Part shown: piece after piece, positions 39,032 through 62,762 of the stretch | Numbering within the stretch: position 1 is the first letter of the stretch | How the letters are laid out: each line of letters opens with the position of its first letter | Assembly: GCF_030412015.1 (NCBI RefSeq) | Contig: NZ_JASNRD010000013.1 | Span: 1-64,000 of the forward strand | DNA length: 64,000 nucleotides | Direction of reading: 5' to 3' | Source: Massilia sp. YIM B02763 | GTDB taxonomy: Bacteria > Pseudomonadota > Gammaproteobacteria > Burkholderiales > Burkholderiaceae_D | Notes under the pieces: generated by a model | Told to the model about the DNA's origin: nothing | Databases searched by the model: none | The model's input: the letters and a program-made list of their open reading frames with translations, nothing else | Translations under genes and position numbers: made by a program

Positions 39032-41020
39032 TCAGGCGTTGCGCCAGCGCCGGCGCGCCAGCGCGCCCATCAGGCCCATGCCGCCCAGGACCAGGGCGAC
39101 GCTGCCCGGTTCCGGCACCTCGGCCGCGGCCAGGTCGATGTTGGTGTAGACGCCGTCGAAGCGGTAGTTGACGGCCAGGCTGCCGACGGACAGCACGCGC
39201 AGCAGCGCCTGGAAGTTGGCATCGTTCGACAGGTCGCCCTGGAAGCGCAGCACGGAGCCGGCCGCATCCCCAATGCCCGTCAGGGTCAGGCGCGCGCCGG
39301 CGGCGATGTCGCCCAGTGCGTCGAACACCAGCGAGGTGCCGCCGAAGTCGATCGTGGAGTCGGCCCCGAGCACCAGGCTGGCAAAGGTCTGCTTGCGGTC
39401 GAACAGGCCGCCCACGTCGAGCGTACCGCCGGCCAGCACGAGCGTGGCGGCCGGGTCGATGGCGCCGTCACCCTGCAGGGCGAAGGTGCCGCTCGCGAGC
39501 ACGATGCTGGCGAAATGGGAGATCGCGCCGCCGTATGCGAAGGCGTTGCCCTTGCCCGCATCGACCGTCATGCTGTTCTTGCCGCCGCTGCCGCCGTCGA
39601 TGTCGCCGATGATGCGGGCGTTGCCGCCGTCGATGAACAGCGCATTGATGCCGCTGCCCATGCGGATCGCCTGGCCGCTGCTGCCACCGTCGATCAGGCC
39701 GGCATTGCGGATGACCGTGGCGTCGGCCTTCGTCAGGATCGCCGCAGTCGCGCGGCCGCCGCCCACGATGGCGCCGCCGCCGCGGTTGTCGATGGTAATG
39801 GTAAAACCGCTGGCCTCGCCCGAACCGACGATGGCGGAATCGCTTGCCCCGCGGATGGTCCCGCCGGCCTGGTTGACGACGGTGGCGTTCGCGTACAGGC
39901 CTTCGCGCAGGCCCCCGCTCAGGTCGTTGCCGGCCAGCGTGATGCCGCGGCCCACCGCGTTCGTGTTGCCGGCAGCAACCTGGCCTTCGATCAGGCCGGC
40001 ATTGACGATGCGGCCGCCGCCGGCCGAGATGCCCTCGCTGTAGGCCAGGCCGCTGGACGGGGCGCTGACCGCGTTCAGCGAGCGGATCGTGCCCGTGTTG
40101 ACGATGTCGACCGTGCCGTCCACGTCGATGCCGTCGCCGTCGCCCGTGATGCCGTTGCCGCTGATGGTGCCGTGGTTGACGACCGTGACGACCTGCCTGG
40201 CGTTGAAGCCGTCCACATTGATGCCGCCGCCGTCGTTGCCGCGGATGATGCCGCCCGCGGCATTGCTCACGTCCAGCGTGAACGACGTGCCGGCCGTGGC
40301 CTGCTCGGCCGTGATGCCGTGGCGGCCGCCATCGACCAGGCCGGTGGCGGCGTTGGCGACGCGGATGCCCGAATTGGACTGGCCGTCGATGCCGTCGCTG
40401 GTGCCGGCCCTGGCCGTCGCCGAACGGATCGTACCGGCATTGTTCACCACGCCGTTGGCGCCCGGACGCACGGCGTCCGCCTCGCTGGCCGCCAGCAGGC
40501 CGCCGGCGTAGTTGTTGACGACGTTGGCGCCGGTGACGACCGAGAAGTCGACGGCCTGGGCCCCGCCCGCCGACGCATTCGTCGAGATCATCGCGCCGTA
40601 GTTGTTCAGCACCACGCTGGACGCCGGCACGTTCATCTGGACGACGTCCGCATCGGCCGTGCGCATCGTCGCCGCCGTGTTGGTACTGCTGCCGTTGTTG
40701 ATCGTCAGGTTCGTCACGCCCTTGTTGTCGCGGATCGCGCGTCCCGTGCCGGTCTGGGCGATCGTGCCCTGGTTGTCGAGCGTCGCGTTGTTGCCCGTGA
40801 TCGCCACGGCCACCGTCGAGCCGCCCAGCGTCAGCGACGCCCCCAGGGCGATGCTGCCCTTTTCTCCGCTTGCGCTGCCCAGCGTCTGCGCCGTCGTCAC
40901 TGGCCCCGTGATGGTGAACGGGGTCGCATGAACGGGAGCCGCGCCCCAGGCGAGTGCCAGGGCCAGCAAGGTGGCGCCGGCCAGTGTGCGGTGCGCGAAG
41001 GGGAGCGAAGGAGCGGGCAT
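39032..41020 (-). CDS. Beta-helix PEP-CTERM surface protein, 662 aa
   Basis: Signal peptide ends VHA. The body is a long chain of right-handed beta-helix repeats, each turn ending in patterns such as VVNNAGTIRS, VVNHGTISGN, IVNTGTIRS, VVNQAGGTIRGAS and IRNAGLIDGGSS. The C-terminus has VPEPGSVALVLGGMGLMGALARRR, the PEP-CTERM sorting signal of exosortase. Such proteins are anchored to or released from the cell surface and often act in extracellular matrix. There is no autotransporter barrel. The gene is isolated, divergent from a 129-aa protein. Confidence 0.87.
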   Translation of the reverse strand: MPAPSLPFAHRTLAGATLLALALAWGAAPVHATPFTITGPVTTAQTLGSASGEKGSIALGASLTLGGSTVAVAITGNNATLDNQGTIAQTGTGRAIRDNKGVTNLTINNGSSTNTAATMRTADADVVQMNVPASSVVLNNYGAMISTNASAGGAQAVDFSVVTGANVVNNYAGGLLAASEADAVRPGANGVVNNAGTIRSATARAGTSDGIDGQSNSGIRVANAATGLVDGGRHGITAEQATAGTSFTLDVSNAAGGIIRGNDGGGINVDGFNARQVVTVVNHGTISGNGITGDGDGIDVDGTVDIVNTGTIRSLNAVSAPSSGLAYSEGISAGGGRIVNAGLIEGQVAAGNTNAVGRGITLAGNDLSGGLREGLYANATVVNQAGGTIRGASDSAIVGSGEASGFTITIDNRGGGAIVGGGRATAAILTKADATVIRNAGLIDGGSSGQAIRMGSGINALFIDGGNARIIGDIDGGSGGKNSMTVDAGKGNAFAYGGAISHFASIVLASGTFALQGDGAIDPAATLVLAGGTLDVGGLFDRKQTFASLVLGADSTIDFGGTSLVFDALGDIAAGARLTLTGIGDAAGSVLRFQGDLSNDANFQALLRVLSVGSLAVNYRFDGVYTNIDLAAAEVPEPGSVALVLGGMGLMGALARRRWRNA

Positions 41021-55604: not shown

Positions 55605-56306
55605 ATGCCCAGCACGCGCGCAGCAGTGTGTGAAGTCTTGACGGCGCTTTTTGCACTCGCCTTGCCGGCGGCGGCGCTGGCCGCGCCGGTCACCGTCGTG
55701 ACACACTCGACCGGCACCGCCTACGTCTACCCGACCGTGCTGTTCGCGCTCGGGCTGGAAGAGTTTCCCGAAGAAGAGGTTCTGCCGTACGAACTGACAC
55801 TGACGTCCACCTTCGACTGGAACGCCCCGCTGCCGGCACGCGACGAAGGCGCATGGAACTACGGCGCGGTCGCGGTCGACTTTCGCATGGGCGACCTGCA
55901 CTACCAGTATGCTGGCACGGAAACAAGTCACGTCAACCTGTACACGCCGTCCTACCTCGGCGGCGACGCGTACTTGCAGGATGTCTCGGCCAATCCCAAT
56001 GGCAGCAGCTATGGCTATTCCTTCGACTTCAGCCACATGCTGCACTCCCCGGCGGGCAGCATGGGGCCGGGCGGCGCACTGACGCCGATGGCCTTCGGCG
56101 GCAACGGCAATGAGAACTCCTCGATGGGTATCACGACGTACTACATCAACGACGAGTTCATCTTCAGCTGGAGAATGCGCGGCGACGTCGACACCTATTC
56201 CGTCCAGGTCACGAGCGCCGTGCCGGAGCCTGCCGCTTACGGCCTGCTGCTCGCGGGCACGCTGACGCTGGCACTGCGCCGGCGCGCCGGCCGCGCGAGC
56301 GCATAG
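55605..56306 (+). CDS. PEP-CTERM protein of unknown function
   Basis: 233 residues. Signal peptide ends LAAP. The middle is Tyr/Asn/Gly-rich with no known domain (YELTLTSTFDWNAP, HYQYAGTETSHVNLYTPSYLGG). The C-terminus is VPEPAAYGLLLAGTLTLALRRRA, the exosortase sorting signal. The ATG at 55605 follows CCGGAGG. It lies 139 bases beyond the katA terminator. The frame remains open upstream but without a signal peptide. Possibly a matrix or surface protein. Confidence 0.82.
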   Translation: MPSTRAAVCEVLTALFALALPAAALAAPVTVVTHSTGTAYVYPTVLFALGLEEFPEEEVLPYELTLTSTFDWNAPLPARDEGAWNYGAVAVDFRMGDLHYQYAGTETSHVNLYTPSYLGGDAYLQDVSANPNGSSYGYSFDFSHMLHSPAGSMGPGGALTPMAFGGNGNENSSMGITTYYINDEFIFSWRMRGDVDTYSVQVTSAVPEPAAYGLLLAGTLTLALRRRAGRASA

Positions 56307-59537: not shown

Positions 59538-60027
59538 TCCGCGACCAGGCGCCGTGCGCCTTCCCCTTTCCTCGCGCATGCCCGGTCCCGGTGCATGCCG
59601 CCGGGTTTTCCCCAGGACGCGCCGTCTTGGGGCAAGCCACCTCATCTTGTCGGAAATCTTTCCACTCGCCTCAGCCACGTATCCTCCGCGAATGTAACCG
59701 TTTGTAGTTCCTTGCCTCAGGGTTTCGGCACCGTCGGCAACTGTCGGTCGATTCATTCCGGAAGGAACTCAACGTTTCCTCTCCACCCCTGACAAATGCG
59801 CACAAAAACGGTGCGCAAGTGTGTTTTCGTACAAATTCGTCGATATTTTTTACATTTCGATGACATTTTCCAGGGGGCCAACGTTTTCTTATTGGAAATC
59901 AAATAGTTACTTCGGTGGCACGCTATATGCAATCCAGGTGTTTCGTGACCCGGAAGGGATAGCCCTCCCCGTCACGCAGAGGGGCACCGCAGACCCCGCT
60001 TCCAACACTTGAAGAGGCGCACTACCC
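59538..60027. other. 490-bp regulatory region before the PEP-CTERM operon
   Basis: No gene is seen. The second half is AT-rich. It contains the perfect inverted repeat TGCGCAC-AAAAACG-GTGCGCA (59797-59817), a plausible binding site for an enhancer-binding protein, and the sigma-54-like promoter at 59916-59931. The first half is a GC-rich stretch with no structure that I could interpret. Confidence 0.55.
59916..59931 (+). promoter_or_regulatory. Sigma-54-type promoter (-24/-12)
   Basis: TGGCACG-CTAT-ATGCA fits TGGCACG-N4-TTGCW with one mismatch and exact spacing. It lies 97 bases before the ATG of the first gene. PEP-CTERM genes are often controlled by the PrsK/PrsR sigma-54 system; this fits but is not shown here. 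Confidence 0.68.
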
Positions 60028-60663
60028 ATGATGATGAAGAAAGCGTTCGCCGCACTGGCACTCGCAGGGATGGCCATGTCGGCACAGGCCGGCATCGTGA
60101 CCAACGAGGGATTCGACACTGTTTACGGAACCGACGGCCTGGCCGCCAAGGGCTGGCTCGGCGTGAACAACAGCAGCAGCAGCGAGCCGAACGGCTGGAT
60201 CGGCGGCAATCCGGACACCTTCGCCGCCCAGTCCGGCGCCGCCACGTCCTACGTGGCCGCCAACTATCGGCTGGCCGGCGCCGACGGCACGATCAGCAGC
60301 TGGCTGCTGTCGCCGGTCTTCGACGCCACCGGCGGCGCCACCGTCACCTTCTGGCTGCGCGCGGAAGCGCTCGCCGGTTACTACGACCAGGTGAACTTCG
60401 GCTTCAACCTGAACGGCCAGTTCGTCAACATGACGCCGGTCAGCGTGGTGCCGACCGACGGCTGGACCCAGTACACGGCCGTCCTGGACGCGGGCACCGT
60501 CGGCATGGCGCGCTTCGGCGTGCAGTACGTGGGCGACTTCAACACGTCCGATTACGTGGGCCTGGACAACGTCACCATCACCAGCGTGCCGGAACCGGCC
60601 AGCCTCGCGCTGCTTGCCTTCGGCGCCTTCGGGCTGGGTATCGCGCGCCGCCGCCGCGCCTGA
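60028..60663 (+). CDS. PEP-CTERM protein (choice-of-anchor type)
   Basis: 211 residues. Starts MMMKKAFAALALAGMAMSAQA, a Sec signal. The middle is a beta-sandwich, jelly-roll-like (GIVTNEGFDTVYG, ISSWLLSPVFDATGGATVTFWLRAEA, WTQYTAVLDAG). It ends VPEPASLALLAFGAFGLGIARRRRA, the exosortase signal. First gene of a three-gene operon behind the sigma-54-like promoter. The first of three consecutive ATGs is taken. Likely surface-located. Confidence 0.9.
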   Translation: MMMKKAFAALALAGMAMSAQAGIVTNEGFDTVYGTDGLAAKGWLGVNNSSSSEPNGWIGGNPDTFAAQSGAATSYVAANYRLAGADGTISSWLLSPVFDATGGATVTFWLRAEALAGYYDQVNFGFNLNGQFVNMTPVSVVPTDGWTQYTAVLDAGTVGMARFGVQYVGDFNTSDYVGLDNVTITSVPEPASLALLAFGAFGLGIARRRRA

Positions 60664-60683
60664 ACAACGAACAGGAGAACACC

Positions 60684-61091
60684 ATGTCGACACCGCATTC
60701 CCTCCAGCGCCTGCTGGGCGCCGCCAGCATCCTGGCCCTGTGCGCAGCCGCCCTGCCCGCCGCCGCGCAACAAGTCGCCGAGCCGGCCCCCCAGAGCGCC
60801 GATGCCCAGACCGTGGCCCGCGACGCCAGCACCGGCCGCCTGCGCGCCGCCACCCCGGAAGAAGTGCAGGCGCTGGCAGCGTCCAAGGCACGCGCCACGG
60901 CACGCTTCGCCGCCCCGCGCACGCTGCCCAAGACCCACGCCACCGGCGCCCGGGGCGCCCGCCTGACGGACGAGTTCCTGACCTCGTCGGTCGCCGTCCG
61001 CCAGCCCGACGGCACCCTCAAGATCGAGCACGGCACCGCCGAGACCGCGCAACAAGAAGCGCCAGCCGCCAACACCCCCGTCGTGGAGTAA
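60684..61091 (+). CDS. Small secreted protein (post-PEP-CTERM-type)
   Basis: 135 residues with a signal peptide ending AAA. The mature protein is Ala/Thr/Arg-rich, with DASTGRLRAATPEEVQAL and VRQPDGTLKIEHGTAE. I recall such genes named post-PEP-CTERM proteins because they follow a PEP-CTERM gene; treat this as a tentative match. CAGGAG precedes the ATG. It sits 20 bases after the PEP-CTERM gene and 3 bases before the protease gene. A pro-peptide or inhibitor role toward the protease is speculation. Confidence 0.72.
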   Translation: MSTPHSLQRLLGAASILALCAAALPAAAQQVAEPAPQSADAQTVARDASTGRLRAATPEEVQALAASKARATARFAAPRTLPKTHATGARGARLTDEFLTSSVAVRQPDGTLKIEHGTAETAQQEAPAANTPVVE

Positions 61092-61094
61092 TTC

Positions 61095-62579
61095 ATGCGC
61101 ACCAACGTCATTTCGCACACCGTCCGCTCCCTGATCGCCGCCGGCGCCCTGACCTGCGTGGGCGCGCACGCCGCCACCATCCAGATCACCAGCCGCGACC
61201 CCGTCGGCGTCGGCTTCAACGATCCGACCCCGGTCGCACCGGTGGGCGGCAACCCCGGCACGACCCTGGGCGAGCAGCGCTGGAACGTCTACAAATACGT
61301 CGCCGGCATCTGGGAAAAGAACATCAAGAGCGACGTCACCATCACCGTCAGCGCGGGCTGGGAAGCGCTGACCTGCACGGCCACCTCGGCCACGCTGGGC
61401 AGCGCCGGCGCCTGGAACATCTGGTCCGACTTCAAGAACGCCAAGCCGGGCACCTGGTATCCGCAGGCGCTGGCCAACAAGCTGGCCGGCGTCAACCTGA
61501 GCGAAGGCTATGACGACGGCACCGGCTATGGCGGCGTCGACATCAAGACCCAGTTCAACGTCAACCTGGGCAACCCGGGCTGCCTGGACGGCTCGCCGTT
61601 CTACCTGGGCCTGGACGGCAAGGCCGGGGACAAGGTCAACTTCGTCGAAACCCTGCTGCACGAACTGGGGCACGGCCTGGGCTTCTCCGTCCTGAGCGTC
61701 TCGACCTCGAGCGGCTACCGCCTGAACGCCGACGCCAGCGCCTACGTGGCGACGGGCGGCCTGCCCAGCATCTGGGAACAGTTCATGTACGACAACACCG
61801 CAGGGAAATACTGGTTGAACATGAGCTCGGCCGAGCGCCGCGCCTCGGCGATCAATCCGCTGCAGCTGGCCTGGACCGGTCCGAACGCCGTCGCCGGCGC
61901 CAAGCAGATGCTCAAGGCGATCCCGGTCATCAAGACCGTCTCGCCGGCCGCCAACGGCAACCTGAGCATCGACTTCAATACCTCGTCGTTCGGTCCGCTG
62001 CCGCCGTCCAGCGGCACGCTCGGCACCCTGGCGCTGATCGCCGCCCAGCCAGGCGAACTCGGCCCGGGTTGCAGCGAATTCAATGCCGCCAACACCGTCG
62101 CCGTGAAAGGCAAGGTGCCCGTCATCAGCCGCGGCGGCTGCAATTTCGCGCTCAAGGTCAAGAATGCCCAGAACGCGGGCGCCGTCGGCGTCATCCTGGC
62201 CAACAACGTGGCCGGCTCGCTCGTTCCGGGCGGCACCGACGGCACCGTCACCATTCCGGCCGTGGGCGTGTCGCTGGAGGATGGCAACAAGCTGACGGCC
62301 TCGGTCGGCAGCGCCGCCCTCCTCGGCAGCCGCGCCAAGCCGGGCGTGGTCACCGTGAACCTGGGCACCGACCCGACCCGCATCGCCGGCGCCGATGCCT
62401 ACGGCCGTCCGCTGCTGTACACGCCGGCCACGCTGGCCCCAGGTTCGTCGGTCTCGCACTGGGACGTCACCGCCAGCCCCAACCTGCTGATGGAGCCGAA
62501 CATCAATGCGGACCTGGGCACCACGCTGGTGGCGCCGTACGACCTGACCCTGCCCCTGCTGAAGGACATCGGCTGGTAA
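61095..62579 (+). CDS. Secreted zinc metalloprotease-like protein with PA domain
   Basis: 494 residues. Signal peptide ends AHA. Zinc motif HELGH (His189, Glu190, His193) in VETLLHELGHGLGFSV. The third His of the metzincin pattern HExxHxxGxxH is not at the expected place (Val199). A protease-associated (PA) domain (about 320-430) shows VPVISRGGCNFALKVKNAQNAGAVGVILAN. The gene ends without a PEP-CTERM signal. It starts 3 bases after the small secreted protein gene stop. Activity is likely but not certain. Confidence 0.84.
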   Translation: MRTNVISHTVRSLIAAGALTCVGAHAATIQITSRDPVGVGFNDPTPVAPVGGNPGTTLGEQRWNVYKYVAGIWEKNIKSDVTITVSAGWEALTCTATSATLGSAGAWNIWSDFKNAKPGTWYPQALANKLAGVNLSEGYDDGTGYGGVDIKTQFNVNLGNPGCLDGSPFYLGLDGKAGDKVNFVETLLHELGHGLGFSVLSVSTSSGYRLNADASAYVATGGLPSIWEQFMYDNTAGKYWLNMSSAERRASAINPLQLAWTGPNAVAGAKQMLKAIPVIKTVSPAANGNLSIDFNTSSFGPLPPSSGTLGTLALIAAQPGELGPGCSEFNAANTVAVKGKVPVISRGGCNFALKVKNAQNAGAVGVILANNVAGSLVPGGTDGTVTIPAVGVSLEDGNKLTASVGSAALLGSRAKPGVVTVNLGTDPTRIAGADAYGRPLLYTPATLAPGSSVSHWDVTASPNLLMEPNINADLGTTLVAPYDLTLPLLKDIGW

Positions 62580-62586
62580 CAGGCCA

Positions 62587-62620
62587 GGCCCGGTCCGGCG
62601 CCACGGTGCCGGACCGGGCC
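62587..62620 (+). terminator. Hairpin after the protease operon
   Basis: 13-bp perfect stem GGCCCGGTCCGGC / GCCGGACCGGGCC with an 8-base loop, just past the protease stop. No T-run; tail CTCACAATG. Confidence 0.65.
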
Positions 62621-62686: not shown

Positions 62687-62762
62687 GGCCTGGTAGCTCA
62701 GTTGGTAGAGCAGAGGATTGAAAATCCTTGTGTCGGTGGTTCGATTCCGCCCCGGGCCACCA
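62687..62762 (+). tRNA. tRNA-Phe (GAA), copy 2
   Basis: Identical to copy 1 at 23737-23812 over all 76 bases, and the CTT before and CAAGAAT overlap after are also shared. Anticodon GAA, CCA encoded. A TATAAT at 62671-62676 is the likely -10. Confidence 0.97.

What the first reader, a model, noticed from the sequence alone, without database searches (positions are those of the whole stretch)
59797..62579. Sigma-54-type operon: PEP-CTERM protein, small secreted protein, PA-domain metalloprotease
Seen: a near-consensus -24/-12 promoter at 59916-59931 with a perfect inverted repeat about 100 bases upstream, then three tightly spaced secreted-protein genes. Only the first has an exosortase signal; the last is a zinc protease with a PA domain. 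Inference: a regulated extracellular module in which the protease acts on the anchored protein or the small protein guards the protease. The small middle gene has no assigned function.
Basis: partly seen in the sequence, partly recalled or inferred. Interest (0 to 1): 0.72.

Follow-up and report, generated by a model that had tools for sequence, protein, structure and literature searches.

The report
Protease with its own separate pro-domain gene
A three-gene bacterial operon makes a surface protein plus a metal-dependent protease that has a small secreted partner encoded beside it in nearly every genome where we found it, and fused to it in one, suggesting that the small protein does the job of the missing pro-segment that keeps such proteases folded and inactive until export.

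Summary
The three genes and the -24/-12 promoter are real and at the stated places. The promoter belongs to a described regulon (PrsK/PrsR/sigma-54 control of PEP-CTERM genes, Haft 2006). The genome encodes PrsR and PrsK. The middle gene matches NCBIfam NF047450, 'post-PEP-CTERM-1', named for its position after PEP-CTERM genes. That name points at the wrong partner. The small gene lies directly before the metalloprotease gene in 51 of 51 loci found by searching for the small protein, and in 79 of the best 80 named loci found by searching for the protease, with or without a PEP-CTERM gene. The one exception is a natural fusion, small domain before catalytic domain. Otherwise the proteases show no room for a propeptide (45-65 residues from start to catalytic core in 77 of 78 measured; 181 in the fusion). 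Best reading: a split zymogen, in which the small protein is a trans-acting pro-domain of a leishmanolysin-like protease. Some lineages add a choice-of-anchor-J PEP-CTERM protein and the PrsR promoter. Binding and inhibition are inferred, not shown.

The parts
59838..59854 (+). Motif 1, likely PrsR (activator) site, CGTCGATATTTTTTACA
   Evidence: Ends in TTTACA as in Haft 2006 (section 7 read); 61 nt before the promoter (published mean 62.8, SD 10.6); found at 61-63 nt in 7 of 9 clade-A loci, window included
59916..59931 (+). -24/-12 (sigma-54) promoter TGGCACGCTATATGCA
60028..60663 (+). PEP-CTERM protein with choice-of-anchor J domain (211 aa)
   Evidence: NF038128 1.3e-31; PF07589 2.3e-6, above cut-off
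60684..61091 (+). Small secreted protein (135 aa), post-PEP-CTERM-1 domain NF047450; proposed trans pro-domain of the protease
   Evidence: NF047450 4e-19, 69.2 bits vs 28; partnership
61095..62579 (+). Secreted metalloprotease (494 aa): signal peptide (by eye), HELGHGLGF zinc motif (H189, E190, H193), PA insert 324-400, H455 and M466; no propeptide
62587..62620 (+). GC-rich inverted repeat just after the operon, possible transcript end (no T run)
   Evidence: 16-nt arms, 94% complementary
59797..59817 (.).
   Evidence: chance-level and not conserved

Best explanation
A split zymogen. Gene 3 encodes a secreted zinc metalloprotease (leishmanolysin-like by its motifs) that lacks a propeptide. 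Gene 2 encodes a separately exported pro-domain, made just before the protease by translational coupling, which binds the nascent protease in the periplasm, helps it fold and keeps it inactive until export. Gene 1, present in some lineages, encodes an exosortase-sorted choice-of-anchor J protein that probably sits in the exopolysaccharide or on the surface and is the protease's place of action (scaffold or substrate). In this genus and its kin all three are switched on together by sigma-54 and PrsK/PrsR, with exopolysaccharide production. Shown: gene order, close or overlapping spacing, promoter geometry, absence of a propeptide, one natural N-terminal fusion. Inferred: binding, folding help, latency, the role of gene 1, and activation by PrsR.
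For: (1) From the small protein: 41 of 41 NF047450 loci in 33 of 195 family genomes, and 10 of 10 further loci in 8 of 368 other genomes of the class sample (one of them, G222, below the curated cut-off), have the protease directly downstream. Of 80 rows (window, 78 of those 79, L249 N-terminus) 77 match NF047450 at E<=0.01. Among 6,021 control ORFs only three real members fell below 1e-3, two of them before second protease copies. (3) The exception, L249, is a fusion: E 4e-10 with an HMM of the other 79 rows among 6,022 ORFs, 8.4e-14 with a hand-picked 14-row subset (residues 58-115), blastp 64% over 36 aa, 4e-12. (4) Earliest start to catalytic core: 45-65 residues in 77 of 78 measured, 181 in the fusion. 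(5) 78 of 79 pairs overlap or lie within 14 nt, taking the earliest possible start. (6) Five genomes without NF047450 hit have a diverged small protein upstream. (7) Precedent: Aeromonas ASP, propeptide-deficient, with external chaperone and temporary inhibitor ORF2 (PMC5638518, passages).
Against: No binding or activity data. The structure test was inconclusive: in the read-through pseudo-fusion the small region (residues 41-120) was less confident (block means 54-90, 10 rows) than alone (74-95, 80 rows). The small model has pTM 0.40 and no PDB match. The fusion is one MAG; it holds only the C-terminal half of the domain; the curated NF047450 model does not match it, and the HMM built before the 80 loci gave only E 0.025. 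In the class sample searched from the protease, partners were significant in 13 of 17 examined loci, weak in 2 and not found in 2 (G561, G268), with 2 more not examined. G008 in the family has the protease, with an in-frame stop, and no partner. A conserved pair is also what an adaptor, inhibitor or substrate would give.
Confidence: 0.6

Rival explanations
1. The small protein is only an inhibitor (immunity-like guard in the periplasm), not needed for folding, as Inh-type inhibitors are for serralysins (recalled comparison).
Against: The proteases show no propeptide of their own, and the fused form has the domain at the N-terminal pro position, which fits folding plus latency better; the small gene comes first and is close enough for translational coupling.
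Confidence: 0.2
2. The small protein is a secretion or sorting adaptor, or a substrate or cofactor, of the protease.
For: A few small proteins look like lipoproteins (lipobox pattern in 5 of 79; others by eye), and protease C-termini vary, with anchor-like tails or extra domains by eye, so localisation may matter.
Against: The partner is present whatever the protease's C-terminus, including proteases that end at the catalytic domain.
Confidence: 0.12
3. The three genes are one PEP-CTERM surface system and the small protein serves the PEP-CTERM protein, as the family name suggests.
For: PEP-CTERM gene upstream in 29 of 41 family loci, 9 of 9 in clade A; a choice-of-anchor J protein in 31 of 31 scanned (window and 30 named loci).
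Against: No PEP-CTERM gene found beside 12 of 41 family pairs and 50 of 80 named loci (some contigs end too soon), nor by eye in the class loci outside the family; none of the 51 loci found from the small protein lacks the protease.
Confidence: 0.08

Closest known systems
PEP-CTERM / PrsK-PrsR / sigma-54 regulon (Haft et al. 2006, PMC1569441)
   Same: Motif 1 ending TTTACA, about 62 nt spacer, -24/-12 motif, PEP-CTERM gene downstream; PrsR and PrsK in the genome
   Different: Most described members are single-gene operons; here a small protein and a protease gene follow closely on the same strand
NCBIfam NF047450 post-PEP-CTERM-1
   Same: Window small protein is a clear member
   Different: By its name, defined by position after PEP-CTERM genes; the data here tie it to the metalloprotease instead
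Aeromonas sobria ASP-ORF2 (external chaperone of a propeptide-deficient serine protease)
   Same: Propeptide-less secreted protease with a small partner encoded next to it; folding help and temporary inhibition reported there, proposed here
   Different: Serine, not metallo, protease; partner gene is downstream there, upstream here; no sequence relation was tested
Leishmanolysin (peptidase M8, PDB 1lml)
   Same: HExxH with a far downstream His and Met (metzincin layout, recalled); profile match over that segment (E 8.4e-4)
   Different: Curated Pfam families did not recognise the catalytic domain; PA insert in part of the family; pro-domain, if right, in a separate gene
RpoN-dependent pepA of Aquincola tertiaricarbonis (PMC9850573)
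   Same: PEP-CTERM gene with mapped -24/-12 promoter and predicted upstream enhancer
   Different: Downstream neighbour is prsT, behind a putative terminator; no protease pair mentioned in the section read

Membership tests
PrsK/PrsR sigma-54 PEP-CTERM regulon | -24/-12 promoter before a PEP-CTERM gene | tested here: met
PrsK/PrsR sigma-54 PEP-CTERM regulon | 17-nt motif ending TTTACA about 63 nt upstream | tested here: met
   59838-59854, 61 nt; the published logo itself could not be seen, only the text
PrsK/PrsR sigma-54 PEP-CTERM regulon | prsR and prsK in the genome | tested here: met
   TIGR02915 755.8 vs 502.6 bits; TIGR02916 839.2 vs 300 bits, adjacent genes
PrsK/PrsR sigma-54 PEP-CTERM regulon | Transcription depends on rpoN and prsR | not testable with these tools
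   needs RNA data or mutants
PEP-CTERM (exosortase) proteins | C-terminal PEP motif, hydrophobic segment, basic tail | tested here: met
NF047450 post-PEP-CTERM-1 | Match above the curated score | tested here: met
   69.2 vs 28 bits
Leishmanolysin family (M8) | HExxH, third His, Met turn | tested here: inconclusive
   H189, E190, H193, H455, M466 invariant in 15 diverse rows; 1lml matched over the segment that by profile position holds the His and Met; their roles are inferred
Leishmanolysin family (M8) | Match to a curated Pfam peptidase family | tested here: not met
   only PA and, in one row, DUF11 at E<=0.01 over 54 rows; only PA at E<=1 for the window protein
Leishmanolysin family (M8) | Catalytic fold | tested here: inconclusive
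   fold searches were filled by PA-domain matches
External chaperone of a propeptide-deficient protease (ASP-ORF2 type) | Protease without propeptide, partner gene adjacent | tested here: met
External chaperone of a propeptide-deficient protease (ASP-ORF2 type) | Partner needed for active protease, and inhibits it | not testable with these tools
   needs expression and assay

The most novel reading that the evidence does not exclude
A widespread class of metalloproteases whose pro-domain has been split off into its own, almost always adjacent, secreted protein. NF047450 is this trans pro-domain family, found with its protease in several phyla, and lineages then add their own surface partner (choice-of-anchor J PEP-CTERM proteins; a YadA-like adhesin gene downstream in one genus) and their own regulation (sigma-54/PrsR).
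Probability: 0.5. Interest if true: 0.68.

Novelty: new variant of a known kind. Interest (0 to 1): 0.56.

Why it matters
It gives a testable function to a domain family that is named only for its position, and suggests that the position is a side effect: the near-constant partner is a protease. If right, it is a metalloprotease counterpart of the external chaperone of Aeromonas ASP, spread over several phyla. It also links protease activity to the sigma-54 and PrsR programme that drives PEP-CTERM matrix proteins. In the library held (which lacks most subscription journals) no paper contains 'post-PEP-CTERM' (0 papers); searches for leishmanolysin-like + bacteria + metalloprotease + PA domain and PEP-CTERM + metalloprotease + Massilia gave 0 papers; external chaperone + metalloprotease + propeptide gave 2, both on Aeromonas ASP (listings seen).

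Tried and rejected
The inverted repeat as enhancer: not in 8 clade-A relatives, present in 16% of shuffles. A lone -24/-12 search as evidence: no enrichment over the reversed pattern. A first combined pattern held one N too many and found nothing; corrected.

A conserved C-terminus of the small protein (E, R, K or Q last in 118 of 124 unique sequences), which would recall ORF2's tail in the active site: rejected as evidence, because the last codons overlap or adjoin the start region of the protease gene. A trans cysteine switch: the commonest residue at one column is Cys (62 of 79) but the window protein has His there and, read by eye, no Cys after its signal peptide.

Structure: fold searches of the pseudo-fusion were filled by PA-domain hits; leishmanolysin is not among the 50 rows shown, and nothing is concluded about the catalytic fold. 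The small protein gave no Foldseek match at E<=0.001 and one VIA row at Z 2.2. No binding-induced gain of confidence was seen. The distance correlation of small protein and protease (r 0.61, 0 of 500 permutations, 77 loci) is expected from linkage and is not used. An alignment with small-only rows (A3) put them onto the protease and was dropped. One of 80 small-side rows, L249, fails the curated model; which other two of the 80 fail was not printed.

Rows dropped: L194 from A2 and, with L206, from the correlation (doubtful start; frame broken early); L094, L229 and L246 (not PEP-CTERM proteins); the upstream stretch of L183, L209 and L095 is cut short. In one search, rows matching only beyond about model position 245 (PA-type) were left out of the count. 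The start-to-core distances take the earliest start after the small gene. One search had no shuffle control. Weak small-protein matches elsewhere in this genome (C34:126355, C1:657793, C1:588879) were not followed.
Full report
What is there. The window lies at G000:C5:1-64000 of a 5.9-Mb genome in 68 contigs. Three genes run on the + strand: 60028-60663, 60684-61091 and 61095-62579. The first is a 211-aa choice-of-anchor J protein with a PEP-CTERM signal (NF038128 110 bits, cut-off 30; PF07589 27.9 bits, cut-off 20.7). The second is a 135-aa protein with a signal peptide by eye that matches NF047450, 'post-PEP-CTERM-1' (69.2 bits, cut-off 28). The third is a 494-aa protein with a signal peptide by eye, a PA domain and HELGHGLGF.

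The promoter. TGGCACGCTATATGCA at 59916-59931 is a good -24/-12 site, but such sites alone are not enriched in this genome. Haft et al. 2006 (PMC1569441; section 7 and passages read) describe before proteobacterial PEP-CTERM genes a 17-nt motif ending TTTACA, a spacer of 62.8 nt (SD 10.6) and a -24/-12 motif, and tie them to PrsR and PrsK. The window has CGTCGATATTTTTTACA at 59838-59854, then 61 nt, then the promoter. The combined pattern occurs twice in the genome and its control 0 times; the other site lies at the 5' end of the PEP-CTERM gene at C56:70593. In a looser scan without shuffle control, 4 of the 30 PEP-CTERM places show plausible pairs, two of them weak (one place, C5:67394, gave no readable stop in that script). 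prsR and prsK are adjacent on C56, near exosortase- and exopolysaccharide-associated genes. Among near orthologues (clade A, 61-76% protease identity), 7 of 9 loci including the window carry the pair at 61-63 nt, and 0 of 100 shuffles reach their scores; so do 6 of 30 named loci with a PEP-CTERM gene (2 of the 30 have a cut upstream stretch; L180 appears to be the same locus as L088). It was not found in L112 and L114 of clade A, in the other family operons, among them the second copy in this genome (C12:25597), or in the Roseateles-type loci L178-L187 other than L180. A sigma-54-dependent PEP-CTERM gene with mapped start is known in Aquincola (PMC9850573, outline and section 7 read).

The pair. 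In 195 family genomes NF047450 occurs 41 times in 33 genomes, and each time the protease gene follows directly. Of 47 family loci with the catalytic part of the protease (50 rows less one 198-base fragment and two PA-only rows), 41 have NF047450, 5 of one genus have a diverged relative in the same place (E 7e-5 to 1e-3), and 1 (G008, with an in-frame stop) has none. In 368 other genomes of the class sample NF047450 occurs 10 times in 8 genomes (one below the curated cut-off), again each time before the protease. Searched from the protease in the same sample, partners were significant in 13 of 17 examined loci, weak in 2 (G473:C41 E 0.003, G486 E 0.03), not found in 2 (G561, G268:C7:7919), with two loci (G473:C69, G268:C7:1557) not examined. 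Of 80 sequences scanned one by one (window, 78 of those 79, and the N-terminus of L249) 77 match NF047450 at E<=0.01.

The exception is informative. L249, an Anaerolineae MAG contig, has no separate gene: one open frame holds an N-terminal signal-like segment, the C-terminal half of the small domain, then the catalytic domain and further domains. The match to the other 79 rows is E 4e-10 in a set of 6,022 ORFs, though the curated NF047450 model does not find it and my earlier HMM gives only E 0.025. In the other 77 measurable proteases the distance from the earliest start after the small gene to the conserved GNxGxTxG core is 45-65 residues, enough for a signal peptide and one strand; in L249 it is 181 (78 measured, 2 without anchor). 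Of 79 pairs, 54 overlap, 24 more lie within 14 nt and one at 22 nt, by the earliest possible start, so the two are probably made together, small protein first.

What the protease is. Across 15 diverse rows H189, E190, H193, H455 and M466 are invariant; the PA domain is an insert between H193 and H455 and is missing in 4 of the 5 class-level rows. A profile of these rows matches leishmanolysin 1lml over the His/Met segment (E 8.4e-4). Pfam and NCBIfam give no family for the catalytic part above cut-off. I call it leishmanolysin-like, not a member.

The PEP-CTERM gene. It stands upstream in 29 of 41 family loci (26, 3) and was found in 30 of 80 named loci, including two MAGs titled Bryobacterales (L193) and Terriglobia (L196), and it is a choice-of-anchor J protein in all 31 scanned (window and those 30). 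It is therefore a repeated but optional companion. In five genomes of one genus a YadA-like adhesin gene, so judged by eye from its C-terminus, follows the pair. Surface proteins as neighbours suggest, without showing, that the protease works on or at such proteins.

Mechanism. The best-supported reading is a split zymogen: gene 2 is the pro-domain in trans of gene 3. The closest worked-out parallel is Aeromonas sobria ASP, whose adjacent ORF2 acts as chaperone and temporary inhibitor, and which a cited title calls a propeptide-deficient protease with an external chaperone (PMC5638518, passages read). The structure predictions neither support nor exclude it: the small protein alone has a confident helix and strands (residues 41-118) but pTM 0.40 and no PDB match; in the read-through model its confidence is lower, with 10 aligned rows against 80. 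Rivals are a pure inhibitor, an adaptor or substrate, and a PEP-CTERM helper; the last is the least likely because none of the 51 loci found from the small protein lacks the protease.

Verdict. The regulon and the PEP-CTERM protein are known kinds. What is new here is that the positional family NF047450 is an almost invariable partner of one metalloprotease family across several phyla, with a fusion and a missing propeptide that together point to a trans pro-domain.

Noticed in passing
L202 and L239: Each holds a second small-protein plus protease pair near the first.
   Followed up: partly
L116-L120 (five genomes of one genus): A YadA-like autotransporter adhesin gene (by eye) directly follows the protease.
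   Followed up: no
G000:C12:25379-27352 (L078): A second copy of the three-gene operon in the same genome (48% identical protease), without a detected PrsR-type site.
   Followed up: partly
window 62587-62620 and 62687-62762: A strong GC-rich inverted repeat after the operon, then a tRNA-Phe gene.
   Followed up: no
window 39047-39118 (-) and 56217-56285 (+): Two further PEP-CTERM genes in the window without a detected PrsR-type site; the genome has 30 PEP-CTERM matches.
   Followed up: no
G000:C56:122804 and C23:293810: Two weaker candidate PrsR-type sites before PEP-CTERM genes (spacers 62 and 43 nt).
   Followed up: no
L249:4539-8534: The fused protease also carries DUF11, cadherin-like and CHRD domains; a stretch that by eye looked like choice-of-anchor J was not matched by that model.
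   Followed up: partly
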